From Ornithinimicrobium sp. INDO-MA30-4 (GTDB lineage: Bacteria; Actinomycetota; Actinomycetes; Actinomycetales; Dermatophilaceae), in contig NZ_CP091056.1 in NCBI RefSeq assembly GCF_021535045.1, forward strand, positions 1,364,001-1,428,000: 64,000 nt of DNA. The letters are read 5' to 3'. Under the pieces are notes generated by a model. That model worked only from the letters and a program-made list of their open reading frames with translations, ran no database searches and was not told the origin of the DNA. The number at the start of each line of letters is the position of its first letter. Within the stretch, counting starts at the first letter, position 1. Positions 23,624 through 59,165 of the stretch are shown here, one piece after another. The position numbers and the translations under genes are program-made.

Positions 23624-23680
23624 TCAGACGTTGAAGCGGAACTCCACCGCGTTCCGGTACGTACAGCCATCTGGTTCCGA
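23624..23680 (-). repeat. Site 1, ychF-tail junction (left boundary of the island)
   Basis: On the minus strand it encodes A-V-E-F-R-F-N-V then TGA, the expected YchF C-terminus. Beyond it the type I arm (GTTCCGGTACGTACAGCCAT) follows on the plus strand. As the outermost copy it is probably the original chromosomal ychF tail. Confidence 0.85.
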
Positions 23681-23741
23681 TCAGGGATCAAGGTCACTGA
23701 GACCGCTCACTTGCAGCCGAGGGGTTGTGGGCGCATGCTCT

Positions 23742-24566
23742 TCACCAGTCGATGCTGAGCATGGCCGCGCTTCGCCGCCAGTGCTCAACCGCGATACCGG
23801 CGTCGTAGGCCTGCCTGTTCGTGCGGCCGATCCGGCCCGGTGCACCGTAGTACTCCCCCGATGTCCACGCCCGGCCCGGTTGACCCTCGATGAAGTGCCG
23901 CAGGCGTGCTCCTCCCTGCTCTGGGGAGATCAGGAACGCCCTGAGCGCGCCGTGGTAGACGCGTTGGAAGTAGCTGTCTGTGTCCGAGGCGAAGTTCGTC
24001 GCGACATTGCCAGGATGGAATGCGACTGAGGAGAGGCCCCGGCCGTGGAAGCGCTCGTGCAGCTCCTTGGTGAACAGGATGTTGGCGAGCTTGGCGTCGC
24101 CATAGGCCTTGTTCGGTGAGAACCCCGCCCAGTTGTTCAGGTCCTCGAGGTCGATGTGGCCGAACAGTCTCGCGCCGATGCTGGAGGTGTTGACAACGGC
24201 CGCGCGGCTGTCGAGCAACTTGTCGATCAGCAGGTGCGTGAGCAGATACGGGGCGAGGTGGTTGATCTGGAAGGTCTTCTCGAAGCCGTCCTGGGTGACT
24301 GTCGGTCCGGAGAACATGCCGCCCGCGTTGTTCGCCAGCACGTCGATCCGCTCGCAGACCTCGTTCAGCTCGCCGGCGAGGCGGCGTACGTCGTCGAGCC
24401 TGGCGAAGTCGGCGACATAGTGCTCGGCACCGGTGGCGGCGGCGACCGCGCTGGTCTTCTCCGGCGAACGCCCTACGAGGATCAGCCGTGCGCCGGTCTC
24501 CGCGAGCTGTCGGCTGGCTGCCGCGCCGATGCCGTCACTGGCTCCGGTGATGACGATCGTTCTCAT
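23742..24566 (-). CDS. Short-chain dehydrogenase/reductase
   Basis: A 274-residue SDR. The NAD(P) site T-G-A-S-D-G-I-G-A-A-A-S is at the N-terminus, N-N-A-G-G-M near residue 80, the catalytic Ser at V-N-T-S-S-I-G, and Y-x3-K as A-Y-G-D-A-K-L-A-N. The position and A-K-L-A-N resemble retinol-dehydrogenase-like SDRs. It is the last gene of a TetR/SDR/SDR operon. Substrate unknown. First cargo module of the island. Confidence 0.9.
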   Translation of the reverse strand: MRTIVITGASDGIGAAASRQLAETGARLILVGRSPEKTSAVAAATGAEHYVADFARLDDVRRLAGELNEVCERIDVLANNAGGMFSGPTVTQDGFEKTFQINHLAPYLLTHLLIDKLLDSRAAVVNTSSIGARLFGHIDLEDLNNWAGFSPNKAYGDAKLANILFTKELHERFHGRGLSSVAFHPGNVATNFASDTDSYFQRVYHGALRAFLISPEQGGARLRHFIEGQPGRAWTSGEYYGAPGRIGRTNRQAYDAGIAVEHWRRSAAMLSIDW

Positions 24567-25522
24567 CGGTTCTCCTTCCTGGGTTCGGGTCAGCAGCGGA
24601 GGGGAGGAACCGGGCTGTGAGCGCTTCGACCGCCTCCCAGGCTTCACGCTCGCGCTGCCGGTCATAGGACGCCGGCGATGATGCAGCCACTCGGTCACGG
24701 TCGATATACGCGCCAGACGGGGCCGCAACCGTGCCGAGCACCGCGTCAGCCAGGAATCGCCCTGCCAGGCTGGGGAGGTCGCCAGCGGGTGAGCGTCAGC
24801 AGGGGCATGACCCGTCGCATGGCGAACCGGGAGATGGCATCGGCATCGCGTGCGAGGTCGGTGCCGGGCACGAAGCCCGGGTTGAACGAGGTGATCGTCA
24901 AGCCGGTCGGGAGTCGGCGCGCGTATTCGTGCACGAGGTAGATGGCGGCGAGCTTGCTGGTCGAGTAGGCGGCCCGCCCCGCTGTGCTGCCGCTCGGGTC
25001 GGGGAACGCGGCGACCCGAGCCAGCGTCTCGACCGGGTGCCACAGCGGGCCCGGCACCATGCCGAGGTTGTGCCTCAGGTCGCCGAAGTGCGTGTCGCTG
25101 ACCGTCACGACGACCCGCGCGCTGGGAGGCAGGTGCCCCTGGAGCCTCCGCAGCAGGACGTGGTTGGCCAGGACGTTGACCGCGAAGGTCGCCTCCAAGC
25201 CGTCCACGGTCTCGGTCAGTGCGTTCGTCAGCTGCACCCCGGCGTTGCAGACCAGCGCTCCGATCGGTGGCAGGCGGCCGGGATGCACCAGCTCCACCAC
25301 CTCGTCAGCCGCCTCGCTCACGCTGCGCAGAGAGGACAGGTCGGCGCGGATGACAGTCACCGACCCGCCGGCTGCTCGCAACTCGTCGACCAGTGCCTGC
25401 GGGACGGTACGGCTCAGCAGCACCAGATGCGCCTGCGGGCGACCGGCGAGCAGGCGGCGCGCCGCCGTGCGGCCGATCCCGCGGCTCGCTCCGGTCATCA
25501 CCACGGTCTGCTCCATCGTCAT
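24535..25522 (-). CDS. Short-chain dehydrogenase/reductase, second (frameshifted)
   Basis: An SDR with T-G-A-S-R-G-I-G-R-T-A-A at the N-terminus, C-N-A-G-V-Q, and Y-S-T-S-K-L-A-A-I-Y for the catalytic Tyr/Lys. The frame breaks near 24765; the continued frame reads L-G-T-V-A-A-P-S-G-A-Y-I-D-R-D, a normal C-terminal region. It starts within the stop of the TetR gene (ATGA) and its end overlaps the next SDR by about 30 bases, so the three are translationally coupled. Confidence 0.85.
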
Positions 25523-26155
25523 CGCCTCCGGGCCCTTCCGCCGGGACCCGGTTGGGCGGTGTCACCGGCGATGGCCTGGATCAGGAGTGTCACGTCGCTG
25601 CCCGGCAGAAGGTCGTCGTGTCCTGCGCCTTCCGCGAAAGCGACGCGGGCCAAGACCGTCCCCACGACCAGGTGCGCCGCGGATGCGGCATCGGCTCCAC
25701 GGCCTCGCCCCGTGCGGCAGCACGGTCGAAGATCGCCTCCAGGTGCTCCCGCGTCGGTTCGAGGATGCTGGTGCGCACGATCGCGGCGAGTTCTCGGTCA
25801 TGCGCCGACTCGCCGACGAGCGCGACGAGTGTCGCGCCGATCCTGCCGGAGAGCACAGCACGCTTATGGGCCAGCAGCGCGCGCAGGTCTCCTCCACTGT
25901 GCCGGTGTCGACGTCGTCCGCCTCGGCCTCGCCGATCTGACCAGCCGCGGCCAGCAGGAGCTCCCGCTTGGAGGGCCATCGGCGGTACAGCGTCGCTGTG
26001 GACACCCCGGCCCGCTTCGCGACCGCAGCGGTGGTCAGCCGGGCGTAGCCCTCGTCCGCGAGCAGAGACAGCACCGCCTCCATGATCGCCGGCGTCAGTT
26101 CAGCATTGACAGGGCGACCTGACGATCCTCCGAGTCCACCTGAGCCCTCTGTCAT
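25519..26155 (-). CDS. TetR-family repressor (two frameshifts)
   Basis: The N-terminal HTH (I-M-E-A-V-L-S-L-L-A-D-E-G-Y, then A-G-V-S-T-A-T-L-Y-R-R-W-P-S-K) is clear. The frame breaks near 25885 (T-V-E-E-D-L-R-A-L-L-A-H-K-R after repair) and near 25695, after which A-A-H-L-V-V-G-T-V-L-A-R-V continues to a TGA overlapping the SDR start. Its ligand is unknown; coupling to two SDR genes suggests it represses them. Confidence 0.83.
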
Positions 26156-26176
26156 GACGATGCCCCGTCCTTTCGA

Positions 26177-26198
26177 TACGAAATGGTTTCCTTTCATA
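26177..26198. promoter_or_regulatory. Candidate TetR operator
   Basis: Dyad TACGAAA, eight bases, TTTCATA (one mismatch), 21 bases upstream of the TetR start. Position and symmetry fit autoregulation of the TetR/SDR/SDR operon. Confidence 0.5.
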
Positions 26199-26279
26199 AG
26201 GTACCCGCACTCGCCCTCCTACACAACCGAGCCCCGTGGATATTCGGTCCGCGATCCGCACGAAGGACGACCACAGACG

Positions 26280-26335
26280 TTAGACCGAAAATCTAAAATC
26301 CACCACGTTCCCACGGCTAGAAACGTTATGGTCAG
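26280..26335 (-). repeat. Site 2, ychF-tail junction, type II arm
   Basis: Minus strand encodes V-V-D-F-R-F-S-V then TAA. It uses TTT and AGA codons unlike the GC-rich surroundings, suggesting a different source genome. The arm to the right (CCCACGGCTAGAAACGT) is the second arm class. Confidence 0.8.
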
Positions 26336-26410
26336 CAGAAGGACCCCCGGCCGCAGGCTGAATACGTCCGCGTCGCCGTCCACACCGATTCCGTGACTTG
26401 CGACGGTCCA
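26336..26410. other. Mini-cassette without a gene
   Basis: About 75 bases of unique sequence between two junction sites, with no reading frame of note. It may be a remnant of a deleted cassette or a minimal cassette. Confidence 0.5.
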
Positions 26411-26460
26411 CTACACGTTGAACCGGGACTCCACCAGATTCTGTAGCGTGGACGTCACAG
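26411..26460 (-). repeat. Site 3, ychF-tail junction
   Basis: Minus strand encodes L-V-E-S-R-F-N-V then TAG, with one substitution of the usual Phe. The right arm begins ATTCTGTAGCGTGG, a divergent type I arm. Confidence 0.75.
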
Positions 26461-26482
26461 TGCGTCACTGGAAAGGAACGGT

Positions 26483-26710
26483 ATGCCCACAGGCAAGAGT
26501 CACTATGTGATCCGGAGGGAGAATGGCCCTTCATCGCGTTGGGACGAGCCCTGCCGCTGCACCATCGGCCACGACCACAACCCGGACGGCTACTCGGTCT
26601 GGGACAGCGACTTCGAACGATGGGACGGCGAAGAGGGTCGCGCGTCGGCCAATCCGAACTGTCCCGCATGCGGGGGCACCGGTGCGTGCGCCCTCTGCGA
26701 TGACGACTAG
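26483..26710 (+). CDS. Small Cys-rich protein, zinc-ribbon-like tail
   Basis: A 75-residue protein with GGAAAGGAACGGT before the ATG. Its tail has C-P-A-C-G-G-T-G-A-C-A-L-C, a DnaJ-type C-x2-C-x-G-x-G-x-C-x2-C metal knuckle. An earlier C-x-C-T-I-G-H lies near residue 24. The rest is acidic and aromatic (Y-S-V-W-D-S-D-F-E-R-W). No family recognised. It is the only gene in its cassette. Confidence 0.65.
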   Translation: MPTGKSHYVIRRENGPSSRWDEPCRCTIGHDHNPDGYSVWDSDFERWDGEEGRASANPNCPACGGTGACALCDDD

Positions 26711-26771
26711 CTAGTCGCTGTGCTTGACCGCGCTTGCCGTACATCAAGCGGGCGCGACCCCGTCGACGGCC

Positions 26772-27602
26772 CTAGCCATGAGGCGTGGGGTGCTCGGACC
26801 ACGTCGCCACGGTTAGGAACGTCAGGTTCGGACCGTCGCCCTCGTTTCGCGACCGTGGCGTCCGTCCACGTCACCACGCAGTCGACCGCGTCAGGCGACC
26901 CCAGGGCCAGCAGCAGGGGGAATCGCGCATCCTGGCCGGGCGGGATCGTTCCGAGAGGCCTTCCTCTCGATGCGTGCAGAACATCGCGTCCTCCGGCAGG
27001 TCCAGAAACTCGAAGTCGACATCGCTCGCCGGCCCGCGGGAGGTGTTGCGTAGCACGAGCGCCCAGTGCCGCTGGGTTTTCACGCGACCCTTGCTGTCGG
27101 TCGCCACACTCTCGCGCACCTCGGCTCGCGGCCACACGCCCTCAGAAGGGTCCGGCCCCTCGGGCTGCGCGTCCTTCGAGGACTCGACCGACTGCTGGAA
27201 CTGCTCCGTCGCTCGACGGTGGAAGTTGTTGAGGTGACCGATGAGGGCCCCGTCGTTGCCGTACTCGAAGACGAGAGCGGTCCTGCGCAACTCGCCCAGG
27301 GAGGCGCTAGGCCGCTGGCGCTCGTCGAGCGCCTCTCCGCTCAAGGGCGGGTGCGGGGCCGAATTCACGAAGACCGCCACAGACTTCCCCACGGCGACGA
27401 GGACCTTGATCTCCTCTGCCGTGCCCGACTCGGCCTCGCCGTTCGGCGTCCTGAGGCGATCCTGGAAGAGCGCCACAGCGAGGTCGGCCTCCTCGACGAT
27501 CTGATGGTTGGGGATCTCCTGTGGCCGCTCCCCGAACTCGGCGACAGCGTGCTCGGTCCAGGACACGGGCAGAACCGTAAGGCCGGTACTGCGGGTGCTG
27601 CC
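26772..27602 (-). pseudogene. DUF4062-like gene, 5'-truncated at a cassette junction
   Basis: The readable part begins L-T-V-L-P-V-S-W-T-E-H-A-V and continues E-I-P-N-H-Q-I-V-E-E-A-D-L-A-V-A-L-F, then S-G-T-A-E-E-I-K and V-A-V-F-V-N, the core of DUF4062-like proteins related to TIR/nucleotide-processing folds. The usual first 35 or so residues are missing: the frame runs straight into junction site 5 without a start. Breaks near 26950 and 26840 also occur. It is either inactivated by cassette insertion or starts unconventionally. It ends L-T-F-L-T-V-A-T-W through half-site 4. Confidence 0.6.
26798..26822 (-). repeat. Site 4, half-site with type II arm only
   Basis: ACCACGTCGCCACGGTTAGG followed by AACGT matches the right arm of sites 2 and 10, but the YchF-tail half is absent. 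It forms part of the 3' end of the DUF4062-like gene. Confidence 0.6.
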
Positions 27603-27607
27603 AGCTG

Positions 27608-27660
27608 TTAGAGCGCGAACCTGAACTCCACCGCGCTCCGGTACAGACCAACCTCTGCGC
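27608..27660 (-). repeat. Site 5, ychF-tail junction, type I arm
   Basis: Minus strand encodes A-V-E-F-R-F-A-L then TAA. The right arm GCTCCGGTACAGACCAACCT is close to those of sites 1 and 7. Confidence 0.85.
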
Positions 27661-27697
27661 AGACCAGTGGTCCAGAGACTGACGGAGGACGTCGACG

Positions 27698-28398
27698 TTA
27701 CTTCGCGACCGCGCCGTCGAGCTGCCGGTGAAGCAACTGGCGAAGCCGAGAAACTCCAGTGCCTGCTGGGGGTCGCGCGGCTCAAACAAGTCGTGAGCAC
27801 GAGGGTTGCGTACGCCGAGCATCGCGCCGCGGAAGAGAGCCGCGAACCCCTCCTGCTCGTCCTTGCCACTCTGACCGGCTGACGAAGCCACCGATACCCG
27901 GGGGTCCGCCCCTCCGAATGCCTCGCCCATCAGTTTGACGCCGGACTGAGCCGAACCAGTCATGGTCCGCACGCGGACCTCGATCGCCTTGAACGCCTCG
28001 CTCACCGCAGCCTCGTAGTGTCCGTCGGCGAACAGCTCGCTTGAGGAGCTGATGACTTCGGCGTGGAGGTTCTCGATCGAGAGCCGACGCACCGGTGGGA
28101 CGCGGCTCGGTGGGGCTGCTCCCCAGGTCACATGGATGTGCTGCATGCCACGGAACGAGGATCCCGTGGGATTGTTCACGTCGACCGTCGCCGCGACCTT
28201 CTTCGTCGTGCCGCCGCGCGGGTCCGGAAACTCGACGACGTCGCCCTCATAGATCGGCGTGTCGACGGCGAAGAATCCGGTCGTGGCCTGAATGTGCGCT
28301 TCTGTCTCGAAGCGCTCCTCATCCTCGGTGCCGGGGTCGTGGACGACGGTGACCTTCGTGATCCCGAAGGTGCGAAAATGCAACGGAAGCGGTGCCAT
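27698..28398 (-). CDS. TIGR02391 family protein (frameshifted near the end)
   Basis: The C-terminal two thirds match TIGR02391: E-A-A-V-S-E-A-F-K-A-I-E-V-R-V-R, S-G-V-K-L-M-G-E-A-F, then D-E-Q-E-G-F-A-A-L-F-R-G-A-M-L-G-V-R-N-P-R-A-H. The R-N-P-R-A-H is a HEPN-type R-x4-H arrangement. An N-terminal beta-rich domain of about 95 residues precedes it. The frame breaks near 27735, after which L-H-R-Q-L-D-G-A-V-A-K and a TAA follow. These proteins are frequent in mobile and defense islands; an RNase role is inference. Confidence 0.78.
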
Positions 28399-28449
28399 GG
28401 GCCAATGTTGCCAGTCAGATCCGACACCGGCTCGACGGTTGGAGCGAGG

Positions 28450-29028
28450 TCAGGCGGCGATGGTCTCGGGACCATCGCCTTCGTCGGCCAGCTCGTAGTC
28501 GATGATGTCGTCGATGCGGAACCGGACGATGGCGTCGGGATCGAGGTGGACGTAGACCGGCCAGTTGCGCAGCCGGCCGATGAGCACATCGCCGTCGCGG
28601 TGGAGGATCTTCACCCACATCCGCTCCCCCGGTGAACGCTTCACTTCCCACATGAGCTTCACCAGATCGCCGGGACGAAGCATCGCCTTCTCCTCAGCGT
28701 CGGGCACCCAGAACGAGTCCGGGTACTTCTTGTGCATCTCCCGTCCGGACTCGACCTTGGCTCGATGCCAGACGAAGCGACCCCAGTACCAGGCAATCTC
28801 GGGGGCGAGCCCGAGGCGAAGAGCAACCTCGAACTGTTGGCACACCCAGAAGGGTCGCTCCCAGCGCGGGACGGCGTAGAGCTCCGCCTGCAGCTCCCGT
28901 CGTCTCGGGTCGTCCTTGGGGAAGAGCCTGACGATGAGCGCCAACACCAGTCCGGGCAGGAACCCGAAGATGAGCAAAGCGATCACGAACGCGCCGAGCG
29001 CGCCGGGTACCAGCATCACCGAACTCAT
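28450..29028 (-). CDS. Membrane protein with DUF2314-like C-terminus
   Basis: A 192-residue protein. One or two hydrophobic helices at residues 5-34 (G-A-F-V-I-A-L-L-I-F-G-F-L-P-G-L-V-L) are followed by a basic stretch. The C-terminal domain, R-P-G-D-L-V-K-L-M-W-E-V then G-E-R-M-W-V-K-I-L-H-R-D-G-D-V, resembles DUF2314. Its start overlaps the PadR stop, so the two form an operon. Function unknown. Confidence 0.65.
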   Translation of the reverse strand: MSSVMLVPGALGAFVIALLIFGFLPGLVLALIVRLFPKDDPRRRELQAELYAVPRWERPFWVCQQFEVALRLGLAPEIAWYWGRFVWHRAKVESGREMHKKYPDSFWVPDAEEKAMLRPGDLVKLMWEVKRSPGERMWVKILHRDGDVLIGRLRNWPVYVHLDPDAIVRFRIDDIIDYELADEGDGPETIAA

Positions 29029-29342
29029 CAGGCGAACCTCACCTTCATCGCTGCGAAGCGCTGCTCCTGCTCAACCTTCCGTACCACCGCACCGATGCCG
29101 GTGCGGCCCGCATCGGTGAGTTTGTAGTAGCGACGCGGCGGGCGCTTCTTGCCTTCGGCGTGCTCCTCCCAGTAGTCCTCGAGCCAGCCCTCACCCATCA
29201 TCCTGTCGAGGATCGGATAGAGAACGCCGGACCGGACGCCGGACTTCTTCGACAGGGCGTAGCCCCAGATCCGACCGTCGTCCTCTTGGTCCATCTGCAG
29301 GACCGCGATCGCCACGAGTGCGAGCGAATGAGTGACCTTCAT
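29028..29342 (-). CDS. PadR-family regulator
   Basis: A 104-residue winged-helix regulator with W-G-Y-A-L-S-K-K-S-G-V-R-S-G-V-L-Y-P-I-L-D-R-M and P-P-R-R-Y-Y-K-L-T-D-A-G-R, the PadR wing signature. It starts at ATG 29342 and is coupled to the membrane protein downstream. It faces the divergent TIR gene across about 150 bases, so it may control both. Confidence 0.88.
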   Translation of the reverse strand: MKVTHSLALVAIAVLQMDQEDDGRIWGYALSKKSGVRSGVLYPILDRMMGEGWLEDYWEEHAEGKKRPPRRYYKLTDAGRTGIGAVVRKVEQEQRFAAMKVRFA

Positions 29343-29490
29343 AGGGCTAACTCTACATAGGTAGGCGGGTGCTCGCAATAACTTGCGGAGGCCGTCCGAC
29401 TTCACCCGCATCGTTCTCAGTGTGTCCGCAGCCGCCCGTAGTCTCGTGACGACAGCTGCTCACGTGCGAGCAGCATTCAGCGAATGAAAC

Positions 29491-30426
29491 GTGAGGAAGC
29501 TCGTGGGCGCAGACCTGTTCATCTCGTACACCTGGACGTCGGAGGGGCACCGGGAGTGGGTGCGCCTGCTCGCAGCCCAACTCAAGGCGCTGGGGTTCGA
29601 CATCCTCATCGATGCCGACGTCGACTATGGCAACGACCTCAACGGGTTCATGCGCAGGGTGGACGACTCCAAGCGGGTGTTACTCGTCGTCGACCAGAAC
29701 TATGTCGCCAGAGCCGACAACATGCCGGAGTCGGGCGTCGGCAAGGAGAACCGCTGGATCGCCGAGGCCTGTGCGGACCACGACACTGTTTGGTTGTCAG
29801 TCCTCTTTGTCGACAACCACTCCTGCAGCTTGCCGGCATGGCTAGGCGACAGGATGCCCAAGGGCTTCGACTTCAACCACACTCCAGGCAGCCTGCAGGA
29901 GTTCCCCGGGGCCGAGCAGATCGAGGACTTGTGGCGCTGGATTGCCTACCTGCCCGCCAATCGTGACAGCGCAACGCCGATCGCGACTCTTCGAGAGCGG
30001 GCCACGCGGCTCGAGCAGCACGATCTACGCAGTAACCCAGCGCAGTGGAGAAGTCCGGACCTCGTCGGCGAGGCGCACTTCGCGTATGACGACGCACCGC
30101 AGAAGACCTTCTGCTGGGGCGTCGGCGCATCCGAGTTCGCACTCCAGGTCAGCGGATGCTCTTACAACTCGATGTACATCTACAAGGATCCCATCAAGGC
30201 CGTCGGCCTGATCCGAGGCGAAAGCGTCGACGACGTCGACCTCGCACAGCACCTCACGCCAGGACGAACCGTCGCTCCGCAGGTCGGCCAGAGCGTCGTA
30301 CTCATGAATGCCCACGGGCGTCTTGCAGTAGTCGACATTCTTGACGTGCAGCGCGAGGACCCGGGCGGCAGCCAGTATGTCCCACCCTTCGTCGACTTCC
30401 GTTGGAGAGTCGTCGAGTCATCCTGA
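29491..30426 (+). CDS. TIR-domain protein with unknown C-terminal domain
   Basis: Residues 6-145 form a TIR/SEFIR-type domain: A-D-L-F-I-S-Y-T-W-T-S-E, G-F-D-I-L-I-D-A-D-V-D-Y, K-R-V-L-L-V-V-D-Q-N-Y, then K-E-N-R-W-I. The acidic residue following the fourth strand region is the presumed NADase Glu (E-N-R-W-I-A-E-A). Residues 180-311 are a beta-rich domain I do not recognise (C-W-G-V-G-A-S-E-F-A-L-Q-V), probably a sensor. GTG 29491 is the likely start. No partner ATPase is adjacent. Bacterial TIR proteins often kill phage-infected cells by NAD depletion (family inference). Confidence 0.8.
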   Translation: MRKLVGADLFISYTWTSEGHREWVRLLAAQLKALGFDILIDADVDYGNDLNGFMRRVDDSKRVLLVVDQNYVARADNMPESGVGKENRWIAEACADHDTVWLSVLFVDNHSCSLPAWLGDRMPKGFDFNHTPGSLQEFPGAEQIEDLWRWIAYLPANRDSATPIATLRERATRLEQHDLRSNPAQWRSPDLVGEAHFAYDDAPQKTFCWGVGASEFALQVSGCSYNSMYIYKDPIKAVGLIRGESVDDVDLAQHLTPGRTVAPQVGQSVVLMNAHGRLAVVDILDVQREDPGGSQYVPPFVDFRWRVVESS

Positions 30427-30577
30427 CGGTGGCTCTGTAGGGGCAGGGAAACGCGGAAAACTTCCGTGTCGGCGAAGCTGACCAGCGGATTGCCGCCCCG
30501 GGGCGAACTCGCGGACCTCACCGCGATTCAATCGGTCGTTAGGCGAGGCAATCCACGTTAAATCTCGCCGCCAGATG
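30427..30577. other. Intergenic before site 6
   Basis: About 150 bases with no supported gene; GC-rich, no obvious terminator. Confidence 0.4.
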
Positions 30578-30635
30578 TCAGTTTGAAAACCTGAACTCGA
30601 CCGAGTTCCGGCACGTACGGCCATCAGCAGGGCTC
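30578..30635 (-). repeat. Site 6, ychF-tail junction, type I arm
   Basis: Minus strand encodes S-V-E-F-R-F-S-N then TGA. The right arm GTTCCGGCACGTACGGCCAT matches site 1 well. Confidence 0.85.
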
Positions 30636-30771
30636 GCCTGGCCCAAGAAGTATCGCTGGTCGTGCCCGATGTCCGACGCCGCCGATATGCTCAGCCTTAA
30701 CGCCCTCGATGCCCTGCGGAGGCGTCGAAGCGAGCGCCGTGCGACGGCTGCGTGACCAGGAGGAGCCGCCG

Positions 30772-51040: not shown

Positions 51041-51077
51041 GTAGCCAGACTACACTATGACGTAAGTTCCGTCCGTA

Positions 51078-51098
51078 ACTGATGATGTCACCATCAGT
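51078..51098. promoter_or_regulatory. Dyad between the integrase and the divergent small gene
   Basis: ACTGATG, seven bases, CATCAGT: perfect seven-base arms in the 118-base divergent gap. It is a candidate operator for a regulator not identified here. Confidence 0.55.
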
Positions 51099-51158
51099 GT
51101 GCACAGTGGTAGAGTTGCACCATCTGACCAAACGCACAAGACGCCCCAGGAGACACCC

Positions 51159-51635
51159 ATGCCGCAGCTGACGCTCAGCTTCCCCGACCTTGCCGAGCAC
51201 GCAAGCCGAGTCCACCCCGAGCTTAGGACGCTCGTTCAGGAATTCGCCGAGACCGACCGCGCCCGGTTCACAGAGTCAGCGTCACTGTGTGAGACGTGGA
51301 TTGACCCCGAATTCAAGAAACTACTCAACACTCTTCAACTCGATGGCCGGCTGCCTAACATCGATACAAACATCGACGCCAACAATGATTTCAAGCGCGT
51401 CTTGACGTTTACGTTGCCGGAGGGCGGCGAGACTACGGATGTCCGCGATATCATCCAGCATGCATGGGCGGCAACGGTCGACACATACGCGGGCGCCCTC
51501 TACCACCGAGCGAAAGAGATCGCGGCAGGAAACTCGAACTCGAGCTGGACCCCGACCAAGCCACGAGCGCCCCCCTCTCTAGAGCGTAGGTCCACGTCAG
51601 GGCCTATTTCTCTGTCGAAGCGGTGTGAGGGGTAG
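51159..51635 (+). CDS. Hypothetical protein divergent from the integrase
   Basis: Starts ATG 51159 with CAGGAGA upstream. About 140-158 residues; I see L-T-L-S-F-P-D-L-A-E-H-A-S-R-V, mainly helical, and no family. A frame slip near 51535 would give a natural acidic end (L-E-L-E-L-D-P-D-Q-A) with stop near 51588. Its place between integrase and RM genes is the only hint. Confidence 0.5.
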   Translation: MPQLTLSFPDLAEHASRVHPELRTLVQEFAETDRARFTESASLCETWIDPEFKKLLNTLQLDGRLPNIDTNIDANNDFKRVLTFTLPEGGETTDVRDIIQHAWAATVDTYAGALYHRAKEIAAGNSNSSWTPTKPRAPPSLERRSTSGPISLSKRCEG

Positions 51636-51701
51636 AGGAGCTCGTCGAGCGCGCAATGGGCAAAGGCAGCGAAGCCGTCTACTCCGACGGCGACGACGCG
51701 A

Positions 51702-52901
51702 TCAAGCTCTGGCACGCCCAGCCGACGACATAAGCCGGTCGGCGTAGCCGATGAGACTGGTGATCAGCATGAGAACCTGGATGCAGTTGCGCTTACTGAA
51801 CTGACGCGAGGAGACGCCATGCACGCTCGCGTGGCGCGAGTAGTAGTTCGGCACCTTGTCGCCCTTGTGCTTCCAGAACTGCTCGTGGGCGTTCCAGATC
51901 GGCAGCCAGACCATCGCCTCGTGGACACCCATCTCGTCGATGGCGGCCGGCACGTCCGCGCCCTTCTTCCGATTCGTGATGAGGCGTCGGGCGGCCTGGT
52001 CGGGGTAGAAGCGGTAGATGATCGTGTCGAGCGTGACGGTGAACATCGCCTGGGCCGAGCGGAAGTGTCCAGAACGCATCGCGCCGAGCCCGTCGAGTAC
52101 GAACTTCAGCTCGTCGCCGACTACGTCGCGGTTCGCCTGCTCAAGAACGGTAGCGCAGTCGTCGGTGATCGACTCGTAACAGTCACCCAGCACCCGCCGA
52201 CGGCCCGAGCGGTCCTGTGCCCGGAGCAGGCGGAGCGCTGTGCGGCCGCGAGGCACCAGGTAGAGCGGGATGCCCTCCTGCTCGAGGAACTCATGCACTT
52301 GATAGGCCTTGATCTCGTCTGCGTGGCTCCTCAGATTAGGCGGGAGGAGCGCACGGTTGAACCCGCGCAGCATCTGCGGGTCGAAGAGCGGCTTCAGGGA
52401 GCCGCGCAGCCCCTCGAGCATCGCGGCCTGCTGGCTCGCGATCTGCTTGAGCATCGGCTCGATCGCTGGGCTGACTCCGACGCCCTTCAGCGCCGGGAAG
52501 TCGATCATCGGAGCCGTGAACGTCGGTAGGCTCGCCACGATCGACGCCACCTGCGACTGGACTCGCTCGTTGTACGGCTCGAGCGCATTCTTGACCAGCA
52601 CGTCGTAGTCAGGCAGCGCCGACTTCATCTGCTCCTGGAGGCGTCGGTTCAGCGGCCCCATGATGTCCCGCGCGTACGCCGAGGTGCCCGGGATCATCGC
52701 CTTCATCTGCTCTCGGATGGGCGCGACCATCTTCGCGACGGCGGCATCCATGCTGGGCATCAAAGACTGCGCGAACCTTGGCGGCAGTCGAAGCCTAGCC
52801 CCGACGTCCGCAGCAGAGTCTCCGTCTTGCTCGCTCTCCGAGTTGCGTTCCCTCTCTTGGGCAGGCTTGAGATCGTCCTCACGGTCATCGTCGTGTGTCA
52901 C
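51702..52901 (-). CDS. Hypothetical protein downstream of hsdR
   Basis: An intact 399-residue protein. The first 30 residues are acidic; then a repetitive helical region (M-D-A-A-V-A-K-M-V-A-P-I-R-E-Q-M-K-A-M) follows. A more conserved-looking C-terminal half has Y-E-S-I-T-D-D-C-A-T-V-L and W-L-P-I-W-N-A-H-E-Q-F-W. No family recognised. It is 85 bases after hsdR on the same strand, so a type I RM accessory is plausible. Confidence 0.55.
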   Translation of the reverse strand: MTHDDDREDDLKPAQERERNSESEQDGDSAADVGARLRLPPRFAQSLMPSMDAAVAKMVAPIREQMKAMIPGTSAYARDIMGPLNRRLQEQMKSALPDYDVLVKNALEPYNERVQSQVASIVASLPTFTAPMIDFPALKGVGVSPAIEPMLKQIASQQAAMLEGLRGSLKPLFDPQMLRGFNRALLPPNLRSHADEIKAYQVHEFLEQEGIPLYLVPRGRTALRLLRAQDRSGRRRVLGDCYESITDDCATVLEQANRDVVGDELKFVLDGLGAMRSGHFRSAQAMFTVTLDTIIYRFYPDQAARRLITNRKKGADVPAAIDEMGVHEAMVWLPIWNAHEQFWKHKGDKVPNYYSRHASVHGVSSRQFSKRNCIQVLMLITSLIGYADRLMSSAGRARA

Positions 52902-52986
52902 GACACTCTCCTGGTCGCCACGCTCGCTCGAACCGACGTTGCATCATCGAGACCGTTGTCGGCACTCTCAGAGACTCTTGGGCGCT

Positions 52987-55900
52987 CTACATCGCTGAGT
53001 CGGTGGCACCCAGTTGTGCGGCCACTTGAGAGGCGAAGGTCGGATCGACGTGGATGCGGGCGACGACGTCGTCAGCGATCTTGTCCACATCAAGAGGCCC
53101 GTCTGGGCCGTCGTACTCCACCGACTGCGCGGGCCACTGGAAATCGACCCGCGGGGTGTAGGCGCTCTCTCCGTCGTCGCCGTAGGCAGTGAGGACATGA
53201 TCAAAGACAAGCCGCACCTTCGAGGAGAAGATATCGAGCGTGTAGGGCGTCTCGGGCAGCTCTTGGTCCAGGACTCGTCGGATCGTGCTGTCGACGTCAT
53301 TCATCACGTCGACCTTGCGACGCCAGTCCTGGACGAGCTTCTCGTGGAGGTGCACGAGAAGCTTCTGGGCGCTGGCCTTGACGGTCTCACGCTCCTCGTC
53401 AGTCAGGACGGGATTGGGTTGGGTGAGCAGGTCGAAGATCGCCAGCTCCTCCTCTGTCAGATCCTCGCGAGCGGATCGCTCCTCCTCATGGGTCAGAGTC
53501 TTCGACAGCTCGATGAGGCGGCGGAGGTACTCGTCGATGTTCACACTGCCCGCGTTGTAATCATTGATGAGCTGTTCGATCCGCTCCACAAGTTCGTATC
53601 GGGTCGGGTTCCGCGTCGCCGATGCGATGGCCTGCTGGCGCAACAGCTGCGCCAGTCGGTCGGTCTCGGCTCGTTCCCGTCCGGCGAGCTTGGCCGACAG
53701 ACCTTCGAAGTCGATCTGTGACAGGTCAATGAGCGGATCGGGTTTGGTCCCCTCGGCAGCGGCTCGGATGACATATTCCTCGGCACCTACGGAGCGGTCG
53801 AGCAGCGCGTCCACCGCATCCATGACCGAACCGAGGTCCGCCTCGGCCGGCCGTGTGACCTCCGCGATGCGCTCGGCGAGCACCCTGATCGCTGCGACGT
53901 TGCGTTGCTGCGCAGCAGCCTTGGGGTCGGGCAGGAGGGCCTTGAAGAGCTTCCGCACCTGGCGTGCCTTCTGCTGGAAGTCGGTGCGTGTGCCCTCGTC
54001 GACGAGTAGCGCCTCGACAGCTGCGTCGCGCTTGGCGACGTGGTCGAATCCTTCGGCGTCGCGCATCGCAGCAAGGTCGACTCCGACGCCGGTGCAGAAG
54101 GCGAACAGGTCGGCCACGGCAGCGTTCAGCTCGGCGGCGAGGGCGTCGATAATTTCGATCGGTGAGTCGCCGGCGTTCGCGGCCCCGTAGATCGCCAACG
54201 CCTTCTCCAGGTTCCGGAAGACACCGACGTAGTCGACGATCAACCCGTTGTCCTTCTCCGGGAAGACCCGGTTGGCCCTGGCGATCGTCTGCATCAACGT
54301 ATGATTACGCATCGGCCGGTCGAGGTAGACCGTCGAGACACTGGGCGCGTCGAAGCCGGTCATCCACATCGCGCAGACGAACACGAGCCGCAGCGGGTCC
54401 TGGGCGTCCTTAAACTTCTCGGCCAGGTCCTCGCGGATCATCCGCTCGCGGTGCGGTCGGATGTCGAGGCCCTGTTCGTCAAGCATCTTCAGCTCGTTCT
54501 GGCTCTGCGAGACCACGACCGCCATGTCGGTGGTCTCCATGAGCTCGATCCGCGATGCCAGCCACGGACGCTCGAGCTCTGGCAACGCGTCATGCTCCGC
54601 CTTCAGGTCAGCCAGATGCTCGGTCCAGGCTTCTCGGACGAGGTTGTACATCCGCACGGCTGCGGCCTTGTCGAGCCCGACGTACATCGCCTTGCCGGTG
54701 AAGCCCCGGCCGACGAAGTGGGTCACGAGGTCCTTGGCGATCGTCTTCAGGCGCTCAGGACGTGTCAGCAGCGTGTATTGCGTACCGAACGCCCGAGCGA
54801 GCTGGCCCTCGGCGTCCTCGTCGAGCTCGGCCTCCTCGAGGAGTTCGTTGAGTTCCTCGGAGAAATTCTCGTTGACCAGCTGCAGCTCGGGAATGCGGTT
54901 CTCGTAGTACAACGGGACCGTCGCGCCGTCCTCGATCGCGTCGCGGAAGTTGTAGACGCTGACGTAGTCACCGAACTGCTCGCGCGTGGCCTGCTCCTCA
55001 CCGGCGATCAGCGGTGTGCCGGTGAAGCCCATCATCGAGGCGTTCGGTAGCGCAGTGCGCATGTTCAGGGCGAGTGTGTCGTACTGGCTTCGGTGCGCCT
55101 CGTCGGTGATGACGATGACATCCGAACGGGTTGAGAGAACCGGCATCTGCCGCTCCCCCAACGCCTTCGACGGCTGGAACTTGTGGATCAACGTGAACAC
55201 GTACCGGTGGTCAGCCGCCAGCAGCTCACGCAGGTGCGCCACGGAGTCTGCGTGCACCCTGGCCTCGGGCGAGATCGCCCCGGCGTCGGCGAACTCCCCG
55301 TGGAGCTGAGTGTCGAGCTCGGTGCGGTCGGTGACCATGACAAACGTCCACCTGCCCGGCACCCGTCGCAGCACCTTCTGGCTGAACCACAGCATCGACA
55401 GCGACTTGCCCGAGCCCTGGGTATGCCAGAAGACTCCCAGGCGCTTGTCCTGCTCAGCACGCGCCCGGTGCAGGTTCTCGATCGCGGCGTTGACTCCGAG
55501 GAACTGGTGGGATCGCGCGAGAACCTTGATCAGGCCACCGGGCCGCTCCATGTACGCGACGAAGTTCTCTAGTAGGTCTAGAAGAACGGACGGGTCGCAG
55601 GTACCTCGAAGCGCAGTCTCCAGGGCGACCGCACCGCGGGTGCCGTGGGCGTCGATGATCTTCCAGTCGTTGAAGAACTCCCACGGCGCGTAAGTTGACC
55701 CGACCTTCGCCTGGCTTCCATTGGACAGCAACACGAAGCAGTTAGGGATGAATAGCTGCGGGATGGTGTCGCGGTAGTCGGTCAAGTTGTTGTCGTAGGC
55801 CGCCTTGACCGACTCGTTGGGCTCCTTGAACTCCATCAGCACTAGCGGTACCCCGTTGACGAACAGCGCCAGATCCAGCCGCCGGCTGTGCAGGTTGCCC

Positions 55901-56319
55901 TTGACCCACATCTGCTGCACCGCCAGCAAGTCATTGTTCGACGGATCCTTGAAGTCGAGGAACCGTAAGGTCTCAATCTGCTTCGTGCCCTGGTCGTCAG
56001 TCCACTCCGCCAGATAGCCGTCACGCAGCAGGTCATGGACTTCCCGATTGGCGCGGACCCGGTCCATGGCTGTGCGGTCCTTCGTCAGCACCTCGATCGC
56101 CTCGTTGATAGCGATATCGGGCACGTATTCAGAGTTGATCTTGCGCATAGCAAGCCGCAGCCGGTGAACGAGCACGACATCACGTTGGGAGTCGCGCCCC
56201 AGGCTGCCCTCGGGTCCCAAGATCTCCTGGAAGGCGTCGACTGGAGTCCAGCCGAGCTCCGCCAGAAGCTCGATGCTCGGCTTCTCGACGTACCGGTACT
56301 CAGGACCCGTGGGAGTCAT
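52987..56319 (-). CDS. hsdR: Type I restriction enzyme R subunit
   Basis: Intact 1110-residue endonuclease/translocase. The PD-(D/E)xK nuclease part is D-L-A-L-F-V-N-G-V-P-L-V-L-M-E-F-K-E-P at about residue 160. Helicase motifs: G-S-G-K-S-L-S-M-L-W-F at about 305, D-E-A-H-R-S-Q at about 405, F-T-G-T-P, and M-T-G-F-D-A-P-S-V-S-T-V-Y-L-D-R-P near 670. The start shares a base with the hsdS stop (TAATG). Forms the HsdR2M2S complex. Confidence 0.95.
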   Translation of the reverse strand: MTPTGPEYRYVEKPSIELLAELGWTPVDAFQEILGPEGSLGRDSQRDVVLVHRLRLAMRKINSEYVPDIAINEAIEVLTKDRTAMDRVRANREVHDLLRDGYLAEWTDDQGTKQIETLRFLDFKDPSNNDLLAVQQMWVKGNLHSRRLDLALFVNGVPLVLMEFKEPNESVKAAYDNNLTDYRDTIPQLFIPNCFVLLSNGSQAKVGSTYAPWEFFNDWKIIDAHGTRGAVALETALRGTCDPSVLLDLLENFVAYMERPGGLIKVLARSHQFLGVNAAIENLHRARAEQDKRLGVFWHTQGSGKSLSMLWFSQKVLRRVPGRWTFVMVTDRTELDTQLHGEFADAGAISPEARVHADSVAHLRELLAADHRYVFTLIHKFQPSKALGERQMPVLSTRSDVIVITDEAHRSQYDTLALNMRTALPNASMMGFTGTPLIAGEEQATREQFGDYVSVYNFRDAIEDGATVPLYYENRIPELQLVNENFSEELNELLEEAELDEDAEGQLARAFGTQYTLLTRPERLKTIAKDLVTHFVGRGFTGKAMYVGLDKAAAVRMYNLVREAWTEHLADLKAEHDALPELERPWLASRIELMETTDMAVVVSQSQNELKMLDEQGLDIRPHRERMIREDLAEKFKDAQDPLRLVFVCAMWMTGFDAPSVSTVYLDRPMRNHTLMQTIARANRVFPEKDNGLIVDYVGVFRNLEKALAIYGAANAGDSPIEIIDALAAELNAAVADLFAFCTGVGVDLAAMRDAEGFDHVAKRDAAVEALLVDEGTRTDFQQKARQVRKLFKALLPDPKAAAQQRNVAAIRVLAERIAEVTRPAEADLGSVMDAVDALLDRSVGAEEYVIRAAAEGTKPDPLIDLSQIDFEGLSAKLAGRERAETDRLAQLLRQQAIASATRNPTRYELVERIEQLINDYNAGSVNIDEYLRRLIELSKTLTHEEERSAREDLTEEELAIFDLLTQPNPVLTDEERETVKASAQKLLVHLHEKLVQDWRRKVDVMNDVDSTIRRVLDQELPETPYTLDIFSSKVRLVFDHVLTAYGDDGESAYTPRVDFQWPAQSVEYDGPDGPLDVDKIADDVVARIHVDPTFASQVAAQLGATDSAM

Positions 56320-57571
56320 TACGCCACCTTCTCCGCGATCAGCGTGTCCAGGTTGAGCGACGACACGTCGATCTGCCCTGTCACGAGTTGGGGTAGCAGT
56401 AGATCGCGAATCGCTCCGAGTCGACTAGAGTGCTCCTCCAGTTTAGTTATGAGCGAATGGAGCAAGCCCACTTCACGACCAAATAAATGGGCTAGAGACG
56501 GTGGAGTCATCACCATTCTGATGTCCGCAAAAGTAGACTTGTTGATAATTGGTGTAGCCGATCCGGAAGCCATTCCTCTGATCCTCTCAGATGCGTGACT
56601 CAAGGCCTCATAAACATAAGACTCGGATGTTACCGAGTGATCAACGACAACTGAGTTCACCTGTTGGTTCGTCACCAACGGCTTAACAGCGAGGGTAACC
56701 TTGCCGATCGATCCGATAGATGAGAAGCAAACGGCACCCGCTGGCAGGAGTCGCGATTTGACACTAGCAACGCCCGCGTCTGAGAGATGCCGCGCGGGTC
56801 GGGCGTATAAGCGCCGCCATCCCATTTCGGTTGGGGTCAGGAATGGCGTATCATGTGCCTCCCCCAGTAGCGTGGTTGCTTAGTCGACGGTGTAGCGCCA
56901 GTTACAATTCGACCAAAGGAACCGACTCGACCGACATGCCATCCCTCAGGGATTGGACCGAGAGCGGAGTCGACCATGGGCACATCGCCGTGGCCGGGGT
57001 AGCGGAACTTCACGAACCACTCGCGGTAGATGGCCCGCGCCATCTCCTCCAGCACCTCGACCCGCCGGCGGTTGTTCTCGATCAAGTCGTCGAAAGGCTG
57101 CAAAATCTCCACGATTCTGCGTTGCATTTCCAGGTCGGGGTATGCGAAGTAGCTATTCCTCCACGCCGGGTGGTGACCCTTATATTCCTCTGTCGACTGC
57201 CTGCCTTTGGTGGCATAGTACAAGAATCGAGTGTCACAGATTCCCGGCCGTCCAATCAACGGAAAGACGTTCTGAATAACCGAGAAGGGCGTCGTCAACA
57301 CCCGCATCGCACATGTGTGATTAGCAAAAGTCACTACAGGAGCATCCAACGAAGCGAACACGCCGGGATCGCCACTGTGATGGCCTAGGACCCCCTCTTG
57401 AGATTGATCAAGAACCGGCACATCGCCATCGATTTCGACTGTTTTCGAGTCGTATCGCTGCCCGGTCGGTAGCTGTTCGTAGGCATCGACAATCCTGGAT
57501 ACATGCCAACCTTCAGGCGCTACGACATCTGCCGCTGTGGGACAGAAGGGCAATCTAACCGTTCTACCCAT
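56319..57571 (-). CDS. hsdS: Type I restriction enzyme specificity subunit (frameshifted)
   Basis: Two target-recognition domains with the usual repeat helices. The first repeat is Q-R-R-I-V-E-I-L-Q-P-F-D-D-L-I-E-N-N-R-R-R and the second I-T-K-L-E-E-H-S-S-R-L-G-A-I-R-D-L-L-L-P-Q-L. Between them P-E-G-W-H-V-G-R-V-G marks the second domain. The frame breaks near 56865. It overlaps the hsdM end by eight bases. It sets the recognition sequence, unreadable by eye. Confidence 0.88.
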
Positions 57572-59116
57572 GGTTTAGGACCGATCCCACGGACGCGTCG
57601 ACCTTCGCTCGGAGCACATCGGCCTCGTCGCTCAGCTTCGTGAACTCCTCGTGCAGCACCGCAAGGTCGCCTATGAAGTCGACTTCACGCTCGTCGACTG
57701 CAGCGGTGCCGGTGTAGCGGCCGGGGTTCAGGCTCCAGCCTTGTGCTTCGATCTCCGCCCGGGTGGCGACCTTGCAAAGGCCGGCGACGTCGACGTACGT
57801 GCCGTCGGGGAAGTTCTCCGCGAGCAGGAGTCGCTACCCTCCTTGGTCTCGACGTCCTCGCCGCGGTAGAGCCGCACGACATTCGCCAGGAACTCGATCT
57901 GCTCGGCCGTGAAGTCACGGTGCGCGCGGTCGATCTGGCGGAAGACGTGCCGGGCGTCAACGAAGAGCACCGTGTCCTCGCGTGGCGTGCCCACCTTGGC
58001 CTTGTCGAGGAACCACAGCGTCACCGGCAGGGTGACGGTGTAGAAGAAGTTGGAACTGATCGCGACCATCACGTCGACGGTGCCAGACTCGATCAGCTGC
58101 TTGCGGATGTCCTTCTCTGAGTGGCCCGCGTCGCCGGCGGAGTTTGCCATGACGAAGCCGGCACGGCCCTTCGGGGACAGCGCAGCGTAGAACTGCTGGA
58201 TCCACAGGAAGTTGCCGTTGTCGGCCCTGGGCAGGCCGAACGGGAACCGCCTGTCACCGGCGAGCTGGTCCTTCTTGATCTTGTCGACGTTGAAGGGCGG
58301 GTTGGCCATCACGTAGTCGAAGGCACCCACGGCGCTGTGCGGGTCCTCGTAGTAGCTGTTGGCCTGCCGGATGTCCCCGGACAGCCCGTGCAGCGCCAGG
58401 TTCATCTTGGCCAGCGGCACAGTGTCGTCGGTCTTCTCCGCGCCGAAGACCGAGAGCTTGCGGCTGGCCGACTCATTGTGACGCTCGACGAACTTCGCAC
58501 ACTGGACGAACATGCCGCCCGACCCGCAGGCAGGGTCGAATACGCGCCCGTGGAAGGGCTCGATGATCTCGACGATGAGCCGGACGATGGAGTACGGCGT
58601 GAAGTACTCACCGCCGCCCTTGCCCTCCTGTGCCGCGAAGTTGGAGAGGAAATCCTCGTAGATGAAGCCGAAGGCATCGCCCGCGAGCTCGGTAGGCAAC
58701 GGCGCGAAGAGCCGAAGCAACTCGATCAATGTCGAACGCTCAAGCTTCTGGTAGCCGCGCGGCAGGATGTCCTTGAGTTCCGGGTTGGCCTCTTCGATGG
58801 CCTTGACCGCTTCGTCGGTGGCCTTCCCAATATCGGCGCCCTCGGGCAGATCGACAAGGTGGGAGAGTCGAGAATTGTCGGGGACGTACAGCACCGACTT
58901 CGCCTTGTAGTCCGCGGGCGTCGCGGGGTTGCGTGCGCTGGACTTAGCCTCGACCTCCCCACGCACGGCCTCGAAGCGGTTCTCGGCGTACGCGAGGAAC
59001 ACCAGTCCGAGGACCGGGTCGCGATACTGGACGGGTGTCAGCTTGGAGTTCGCACGCAGCTCGTCTGCGGCGCTCCAGAGCGTCGCGCGAACCTTGGCAA
59101 GATCAGTCGCTTTCAC
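57564..59116 (-). CDS. hsdM: Type I restriction enzyme M subunit (frameshifted)
   Basis: N6-adenine methyltransferase. SAM site F-D-P-A-C-G-S-G-G-M-F at about residue 190, catalytic N-P-P-F-N-V-D at about 270. A typical N-terminal helical domain (A-T-L-W-S-A-A-D-E-L-R) begins at GTG 59116. The frame breaks near 57835; repaired it gives L-L-A-E-N-F-P-D-G-T-Y-V-D-V and a normal C-terminus. The GTG overlaps the ychF TGA (GTGA), so ychF and hsdM may be co-translated. Confidence 0.92.
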
Positions 59117-59165
59117 TTCTTGCCCCCAGACGGAATCCCTGTCCGGAACTCGACCACGTCGCCAT
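59113..59165 (-). repeat. Site 14, ychF 3' end, right boundary of the island
   Basis: G-D-V-V-E-F-R of YchF is kept, then T-G-I-P-S-G-G-K-K and TGA replace the usual F-N-V stop. It is the junction between the chromosomal ychF and the element. Confidence 0.8.

What the first reader, a model, noticed from the sequence alone, without database searches (positions are those of the whole stretch)
23624..59165. Integron-like cassette array built on repeated copies of the ychF 3' end
Eleven sites (23624, 26280, 26411, 27608, 30578, 32820, 34842, 36025, 37417, 40660, 41765) read on the minus strand as (V/A/S/L)-V-(E/D)-F-R-F-(N/S/A)-(V/L/N) then an immediate stop; one copy has Ser for the first Phe. 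All have the same orientation as ychF at 59113-60216 and all three stop codons are used. They separate unrelated cargo modules. Each insert seems to carry its own ychF tail and to restore the YchF C-terminus when it enters, so inserts can stack at one locus. A serine integrase, not an integron tyrosine integrase, is the only recombinase present. The repeats and their coding are seen directly; stacking at ychF and the recombinase are inference.
Basis: partly seen in the sequence, partly recalled or inferred. Interest (0 to 1): 0.95.

Follow-up and report, generated by a model that had tools for sequence, protein, structure and literature searches.

The report
Stackable gene cassettes behind ychF
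Eleven copies of the last codons of the gene ychF cut this stretch of an actinobacterial chromosome into small gene cassettes, some of which also occur almost unchanged in other genera, and which are likely moved by phage-type serine integrases that target the end of ychF, so the bacteria may use this spot to collect toxin-antitoxin, defence and resistance genes much as integrons do.

Summary
Ten exact tail motifs (chance 0.02), plus one variant, lie on ychF's strand, and the pattern occurs nowhere else in this genome. Similar arrays occur behind ychF across Actinomycetota: 359 sites in 132 of 135 loci, never on both strands of a locus. Whole cassettes, cut exactly at the site, are 98-99.8% identical between hosts whose ychF is only 70-77% identical, and they sit in different orders. 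Exchange falls within a 2-bp GT, the mark of a serine recombinase. The distal half of the sites matches attP-like halves beside large serine integrases, some in phage contigs; the tail half is attB-like, its outer motif 5 bp nearer the core, as described for serine integrases. So an insertion would restore YchF's C-terminus and rebuild attB. Of 227 cassettes none has an intact integrase of this family (2 carry remnants) or a tyrosine recombinase, so mobilisation in trans is inferred. In the window a 17-kb element with a phage-type ychF tail and a broken serine-integrase gene caps the array. It works like an integron and like SCC arrays, but is a member of neither. Excision was not seen. Ten paper searches showed no description of it.

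The parts
59113..60216 (-). ychF; tail DVVEFRTGIPSGGKK instead of VEFRFNV; crossover GT at 59154
41788..59154 (-). ychF-proximal 17.4-kb stretch (cap of the array) behind a phage-type ychF tail; may be composite
57728..59218 (-). hsdM ORF of a type I restriction-modification system, overlapping the ychF stop (true start probably near 59116)
56319..57571 (-). hsdS in two ORFs (56837-57571 and 56319-56825)
52987..56319 (-). hsdR
49480..51040 (-). large serine integrase gene, broken over three frames (lower end approximate); N-terminal part 75% identical to the integrase beside ychF in genome G038
41765..41788 (-). tail site 1 (VEFRFAV stop)
40682..41788 (-). cassette 1, 1106 bp, weak PLD-like ORF 40989-41552 (below Pfam's cut-off)
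40659..40682 (-). tail site 2 (VEFRFNV stop)
37440..40682 (-). cassette 2, 3242 bp, candidate defence AAA protein PDC-S46 (37454-39715); 99.8% identical to a Kocuria carniphila cassette next to ychF
37417..37440 (-). tail site 3 (VEFRFNV stop)
36048..37440 (-). cassette 3, 1392 bp, VapC-like PIN and GNAT acetyltransferase; also in Kocuria carniphila and Gulosibacter sediminis
36025..36048 (-). tail site 4 (VEFRFNV stop)
34865..36048 (-). cassette 4, 1183 bp, RCC1-repeat ORF on the other strand (34945-35994)
34842..34865 (-). tail site 5 (VEFRFSL stop)
32843..34865 (-). cassette 5, 2022 bp, similar in DNA to plasmid merA and its regulator; no single full-length merA frame was recognised
32820..32843 (-). 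tail site 6 (VEFRFNV stop)
30601..32843 (-). cassette 6, 2242 bp, coiled-coil-like ORF 30709-32064 on the other strand (weak matches only)
30578..30601 (-). tail site 7 (VEFRFSN stop)
27631..30601 (-). cassette 7, 2970 bp, TIR/SEFIR ORF (+), PadR regulator, ORF with a TIGR02391 domain (its frame runs on through tail site 8)
27608..27631 (-). tail site 8 (VEFRFAL stop)
26434..27631 (-). cassette 8, 1197 bp, unknown ORF
26411..26434 (-). tail site 9 (VESRFNV stop)
26303..26434 (-). cassette 9, 131 bp, too short for an ordinary gene
26280..26303 (-). tail site 10 (VDFRFSV stop)
23647..26303 (-). cassette 10, 2656 bp, TetR regulator and short-chain dehydrogenase
23624..23647 (-). last tail site (VEFRFNV stop); its 24 bases equal the ychF end of the nearest relative G020

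Best explanation
The region is a tandem array of ten small cassettes (131 bp to 3.2 kb) stacked at the 3' end of ychF and likely moved by phage-type large serine integrases supplied in trans. Shown: the typical cassette boundary has an attP-like half on its ychF-ward side, a central GT, and an attB-like half that encodes the YchF C-terminus and stop; shared cassettes change neighbours at that GT; the same cassettes sit in other genera; serine integrases of one branch lie beside such sites, and phage contigs with such integrases have attP-like sites that would encode an alternative YchF tail. Inferred: a cassette leaves as a circle bearing its attP-like half joined to its attB-like half, and recombines with the site at the ychF end. 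Because its tail half is a copy of attB, insertion would rebuild both the YchF C-terminus and a usable attB, so the next cassette would enter between ychF and the older ones. Phage-type elements bring a full attP, turn the ychF end into attL with a tail such as VEFRTGIPSGGKK, and would cap the array until they leave; that is the present state of the window.
For: Motif far above chance and confined to the array. Same-strand arrays elsewhere: 359 sites in 132 of 135 loci, no locus with both strands; 207 on ychF's strand and 0 on the other in the 71 loci with ychF. A search by the distal half alone (1 mismatch allowed) in 94 genomes gives 9 hits, 8 in ychF arrays. Shared whole cassettes: 19 families, 55 of 227 cassettes, in different orders; for seven locus pairs cassette identity is 98.2-99.8% with ychF at 70-77%. 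Exchange: mismatches between neighbours begin at the base before GT (0.35 of 17 left ends) and at the base after it (0.46 of 26 right ends) (the zero at GT itself is built into the site finder). Outer motif at offset 18 in 271 distal halves, in five phage attP-like sites (both halves) and ten phage-type ychF tails, but at offset 13 in 336 tail halves: the 5-bp attP/attB shift reported for serine integrases (PMC3783163, passages). Integrase beside such a site in Nonomuraea lactucae and Brevibacterium sp. S111, remnants beside sites in two further Brevibacterium. Tail codons: 519 synonymous against 154 non-synonymous changed codons where 22% synonymous is expected. One-cassette difference at ychF between two related strains. 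In G011 and G026 the DNA after the last site matches the DNA after ychF in congeners without an array.
Against: No excised circle or transfer event was seen. PF07508 finds no integrase in 9 of 20 genomes, all nine with arrays or elements at ychF, so the enzyme may have to come from outside; that search also missed the window's broken copy, so decayed copies can escape it. Serine integrases are reported not to recombine pairings other than attP with attB, or attL with attR with the directionality factor (PMC3783163 abstract); a circle with an attR-like site would break that rule. ychF's own upstream half, the other half of the supposed attB, lacks the motif at offset 13 (2.38 of 8, 63 halves). 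Integrase-side halves vary: G045, G026 and G280 score low on the cassette profile, as do three of six viral sites. No match of the window array in phage records, only merA-like matches in plasmids; 0 sites of the main type in viral contigs. 33 of 228 sites have lost the stop at codon 8. Of nine arrays tested, only two had a flank match from the tail on; the window had none beyond 25 bp, and against G020 homology resumes 204 bp after the last site but 3.85 kb after G020's ychF. Branch support for the integrases is moderate (82/97), and one of 16 distant integrases also lies near ychF.
Confidence: 0.78

Rival explanations
1. Piggyback on phages: cassettes never circulate alone. A phage integrated at ychF leaves by pairing its attL with the attR-like site of an older cassette, takes that cassette along, and drops it in the next host when it leaves by its own attR.
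For: Uses only the canonical reactions (PMC3783163 passages); cassette boundaries are attR-like; the window, G026, G045 and G038 show an integrase element between ychF and tail sites; the Nonomuraea integrase is sister to a phage integrase.
Against: No viral contig holds a site of the main cassette type; no phage record matches the window array.
Confidence: 0.3
2. A graveyard of decayed prophages and islands at a favoured attachment site, whose ends remain while the insides decay in place.
For: Integrase remnants in two cassettes and near sites in L064; degenerate sites.
Against: Cassettes of 0.2-3.2 kb are nearly identical end to end in different genera and orders; tail halves are attB-like, not the attP-like halves that prophage elements leave at ychF.
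Confidence: 0.1
3. An integron with a tyrosine integrase acting on folded single strands.
For: Arrays of small same-orientation cassettes with addition at one end and toxin-antitoxin cargo.
Against: Exchange within 2 bp; 5-bp attP/attB geometry; no PF00589 match of this genome inside the window; 0 of 227 cassettes match a tyrosine-recombinase profile made from 20 relatives' genes.
Confidence: 0.02
4. Transfer by homologous recombination through ychF and neighbouring genes, with chance tail repeats.
For: Arrays lie beside a conserved gene.
Against: ychF is 70-77% identical where cassettes are 98-99.8%; the motif is 500 times above chance in the window.
Confidence: 0.02

Closest known systems
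Staphylococcal and enterococcal cassette chromosome (SCC, ECC) regions at rlmH
   Same: Serine recombinases; insertion in the 3' end of a housekeeping gene that stays intact; direct repeats that partition tandem stretches; segments without ccr genes; the ECC circle site shares the inverted repeats of attR (PMC4723332 and PMC6222049, passages).
   Different: Other gene (ychF), other integrases (intact L120 and L046 score 74 and 67 bits for CcrB, cut-off 900), many 1-kb cassettes, spread over a phylum, no enzyme in the cassettes.
Integrons (chromosomal cassette arrays)
   Same: Small same-orientation cassettes, addition next to a fixed point, cassettes shared between species in new orders, toxin-antitoxin cargo (the picture of integrons is recalled).
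   Different: No tyrosine integrase at the array, exchange within 2 bp on attP/attB-like sites, the fixed point is the end of a protein gene.
Phage large serine integrases with attP/attB
   Same: 2-bp crossover, attB outer motif 5 bp nearer the core, attP-like site next to the integrase gene.
   Different: Cassettes have one attP-like and one attB-like half and so would regenerate attB.
PLE satellites of Vibrio cholerae (PMC6002521, abstract start in the search listing only)
   Same: Anti-phage islands with a large serine recombinase and phage help in excision.
   Different: PLE 1 encodes its own integrase and is one island, not a stack of enzyme-free cassettes.

Membership tests
Integron | Tyrosine integrase IntI beside the array | tested here: not met
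   None of 7 PF00589 matches of G000 lies in the window's range; no such hit in 40 window ORFs nor in the window or the 227 cassettes with a home-made profile
Integron | Same-orientation cassettes stacked at one point | tested here: met
Integron | attC sites recombined as folded single strands | not tested
   not folded; exchange within 2 bp speaks against it
SCC/ECC element | Insertion in the 3' end of rlmH | tested here: not met
   insertion is in ychF
SCC/ECC element | CcrA, CcrB or CcrC recombinase | tested here: not met
   best scores 74.2 and 66.6 bits for CcrB in intact L120 and L046 integrases, 58.3 for the window's N-terminal part; cut-off 900
SCC/ECC element | Gene end restored, direct repeats partition the region | tested here: met
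Large serine integrase system | 2-bp exchange | tested here: met
Large serine integrase system | attB outer motif 5 bp nearer the core than in attP | tested here: met
   met for the tail half; ychF's own upstream half shows no such motif at that place
Large serine integrase system | Intact integrase in the element | tested here: not met
   0 of 227 bounded cassettes, 2 remnants; window copy broken
Large serine integrase system | Recombination by the enzyme | not testable with these tools
   needs a bench assay

The most novel reading that the evidence does not exclude
A phylum-wide gene-capture platform: the serine-integrase counterpart of the integron, in which cassettes without any enzyme borrow phage integrases, carry a copy of attB that rebuilds both a host protein's C-terminus and the entry site, and so can stack without limit until a phage insertion closes the door.
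Probability: 0.55. Interest if true: 0.93.

Novelty: new variant of a known kind. Interest (0 to 1): 0.87.

Why it matters
It would give Actinomycetota, from Brevibacterium and Microbacterium to Nocardia and Dermacoccus, a cassette-collecting locus that carries toxin-antitoxin pairs, candidate phage-defence genes and mer-like genes between genera. It makes two open questions testable: how integrase-free cassettes spread, and whether phage integrases serve bacteria as shared recombinases. It also offers a simple search pattern for new defence genes behind ychF.

Tried and rejected
Considered and dropped: an integron proper (exchange within 2 bp; no tyrosine integrase in the window or cassettes); XerCD sites (thought of, not tested); the idea that the recurrent 630-bp start of some cassettes was the recombinase (it is a HigB toxin with a helix-turn-helix partner). 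Searches without yield: the array in phage records, cassette sites of the main type in viral contigs, papers on ychF with integration (they gave pneumococcal prophages next to ychF, a different arrangement, passages), cassettes with serine integrases. Plasmids gave only merA-like matches, 16 records.

Weak points told: the site finder demands the tail; therefore also used a distal-half profile, trained on sites found by the tail but scoring only the other half. The L061 remnant's half was in that training set; L120, L161, L136 and the viral ones were not. The 8-base outer motif was read off the distal-half consensus before it was placed. The p-value treats related sites as independent and is overstated. 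Dropped or chosen rows: L059 and L122 (same genomes as L038 and L041); L157 (same as L036) only; of six viral sites L202 (other strand, low score) was left out, and of the foreign ychF tails seen, L048 and L049 were left out of its set of ten; L198 and L224 (short frames) before the tree. The 28 integrase loci come from the best-scoring rows; G395 and G107 among those rows were not fetched. Shuffled labels on the tree gave no significance (209 of 500 as low); that test set the ychF rows only against the viral ones. The count of genomes with arrays rests on a cut listing. The cargo survey saw ORFs from 86 of 173 representative cassettes and only the 25 commonest of 136 Pfam and 62 PADLOC families.
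Full report
What is there. Eleven sites on the minus strand read V-E/D-F/S-R-F-x-x-stop, all in ychF's orientation. The pattern GTNGANTTYMGNTTY has 10 matches in the window against 0.02 expected and no other match in the 2.8-Mb genome. ychF ends at 59113 and its own tail is DVVEFRTGIPSGGKK, whereas most relatives examined end in DVVEFRFNV. The last site of the array (23647) carries the same 24 bases as the ychF end of the nearest relative G020 (protein 98.6% identical over residues 1-361), so the original gene end would have been pushed 35 kb away. The DNA just after it does not match G020: homology resumes 204 bp on in the window and 3.85 kb on in G020.

Arrays elsewhere. In relatives the same motif recurs downstream of ychF on the same strand; from the cut listing and the positions I count at least 20 of 97 genomes with an extra motif on ychF's strand and contig within 60 kb downstream (stop codon not required). 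A scan of named genomes with a pattern spanning the distal half and tail returned 116 stretches and stopped at its limit: Brevibacterium, Demequina, Microbacterium, Kocuria, Brachybacterium, Glutamicibacter, Agrococcus, Nocardia and others, with a few odd metagenome bins (names). With the window and 20 stretches of relatives, 135 loci were examined (two duplicates left out): 359 sites in 132, none with sites on both strands; in the 71 loci with ychF, 207 sites on its strand and 0 on the other. A search with the distal half alone, blind to the tail, gave 9 hits in 94 genomes, 8 of them in ychF arrays; the ninth (G071) has a tail motif but lies on another contig than ychF.

Cassettes move as units. 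Consecutive sites bound 227 cassettes, median 1285 bp, 131 to 6614 bp. Nineteen families are shared, 55 cassettes in all, in different orders. The window's 3242-bp and 1392-bp cassettes are 99.8 and 99.6% identical to two in Kocuria carniphila, where the first touches ychF. For seven locus pairs with measurable ychF, cassettes are 98.2-99.8% identical and ychF 70-77%. Arthrobacter sp. MYb213 and Glutamicibacter ardleyensis (last 270 bp of ychF 94% identical) share two neighbouring cassettes, and the former has one more, 3073 bp, between them and ychF. Flanks: of nine arrays of the genus, two (G011, G026) are followed after the last site by the DNA that follows ychF in congeners (G030, G007), starting at the tail; two (G021, G025) match such DNA from about 0.6 kb on; G008 matched only itself; four, the window included, showed no match beyond the tail.

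Where exchange happens. Among 37 pairs of near-identical cassettes, 17 left ends and 26 right ends have different neighbours. Mismatch rates are 0.35 at the base before GT on left ends and 0.46 at the base after GT on right ends, against 0 to 0.12 within the cassettes. The zero at GT itself is demanded by the site finder; the bounds come from the bases on either side. An exchange of 2 bp is the mark of serine recombinases (established knowledge).

Half-sites. The distal half has a conserved outer motif, reverse complement AACCTCTG, starting 18 bases from GT (5.39 of 8 matched, 271 halves; best of 2000 permuted motifs 4.84); the tail half has it 13 bases from GT (4.93 of 8, 336 halves). Five phage attP-like sites have it at 18 on both sides (5.4 and 5.6), and ten phage-type ychF tails at 18 (5.2); ychF's own upstream half has no peak at 13 (2.38, 63 halves). 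The attB motif lying 5 bp nearer the core than in attP is what was found for serine integrases (PMC3783163, passages). So typical array junctions are attR-like, a ychF end with a cassette is a rebuilt attB, and a ychF end with a phage element is attL. The tail half evolves as protein-coding sequence: among 228 sites picked by the distal half and followed by GT (of 244), 195 stop at codon 8, and changed codons are 519 synonymous to 154 not (22% synonymous expected).

The enzyme. Large serine integrases lie beside such sites or ychF in G026, G045 and G038, Nonomuraea lactucae (L120) and Brevibacterium sp. S111 (L161); a cut one lies in Glutamicibacter creatinolyticus (L127), and remnants in two Brevibacterium cassettes and in Demequina globuliformis (L064). 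On the cassette distal-half profile the halves beside L120, L161 and the two Brevibacterium remnants score 21.6 to 29.5 bits, and phage contigs L200 and L197 19.2 and 18.1, levels that none of 20,352 interior GT positions reaches; L198 scores 11.8, L206 8.7, L203 5.7, L202 -6.9, G026 9.0, G280 8.5 and G045 -1.9, so specificities differ. Of 10 viral contigs with integrase relatives, 6 have a VEFR-coding site by the integrase, 2 end at its start and 2 have none. Relatives at 40% identity or more have ychF or a tail site within the fetched stretch in 8 of 12 cases, more distant ones in 1 of 16. On the tree all ychF-linked rows kept and the five viral rows with such a site fall on one side, with moderate support; L120 is sister to phage L197 (100/97). 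The window's copy is broken over three frames. A profile of this integrase family finds only the two remnants in the 227 cassettes, and a tyrosine-recombinase profile finds none there and one in all the array loci (L048).

Cargo. In 135 ORFs picked by codon usage from 86 of 173 representative cassettes, HTH_3 domains occur in 10, PIN in 8, FitA-like antitoxins in 6, HepT in 3, short-chain dehydrogenases in 5, glyoxalases in 5; candidate defence families also occur. A HigB/HigA-like pair is found in 35 of 227 cassettes. In the window: PDC-S46, a SEFIR/TIR protein, VapC-like PIN, mer-like genes, and in the cap a type I restriction system.

Reading. Cassettes without an enzyme, with one attP-like and one attB-like half, stack at ychF and would rebuild the YchF C-terminus and the entry site each time. 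That the enzyme is a phage-type serine integrase acting in trans is inferred from site likeness and neighbourhood; whether cassettes travel as circles or on phages is open. SCC arrays at rlmH are the nearest known relatives in logic (PMC4723332, PMC6222049, passages). My ten paper searches in an open-access library (one search was on half-sites) showed no description of this system; absence from print elsewhere is not shown.

Noticed in passing
L042 1497-2067, L095 6929-7499 and other cassettes: A HigB toxin and helix-turn-helix partner pair occurs in 35 of 227 cassettes, at the start of several otherwise unrelated ones, as in integron arrays (the latter recalled).
   Followed up: yes
window 51040-51100: Upstream of the broken integrase lies a stretch resembling an attP-like half but with CA instead of GT, beside bases resembling the ychF end; perhaps a dead boundary inside the 17-kb stretch (by eye).
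   Followed up: no
window 32900-34800, 49480-51040, 56319-57571: mer, integrase and hsdS frames all look interrupted and the assembly is scored 74.86% complete; frameshift errors in the assembly are possible.
   Followed up: no
L032, L036, L041 tail halves: Several cassettes have a second copy of the attB-like motif just after the tail stop (such as GCGTTCCGGTTCAACCTCTGG), as if a short ychF patch had been laid over an older half-site.
   Followed up: no
L038 2825-3046, L083 491-712, L129: A 221-bp cassette, too short for an ordinary gene, is 96-97% identical in Brachybacterium, Glutamicibacter and Microbacterium.
   Followed up: no
G071 contig C2 near 116760: A distal half with a tail motif lies on another contig than ychF: possibly an array moved elsewhere.
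   Followed up: no
L036 6314, L055 6141, L119 1882, L151 1065: Distal halves followed by GG instead of GT: probably dead or shifted sites.
   Followed up: no
L197, L198, L200, L203, L206: Phage attP-like sites would encode alternative YchF tails (such as VEFRSGITSGAKR), and at least ten ychF genes seen here carry such tails, so these phages would change the end of a host protein.
   Followed up: partly
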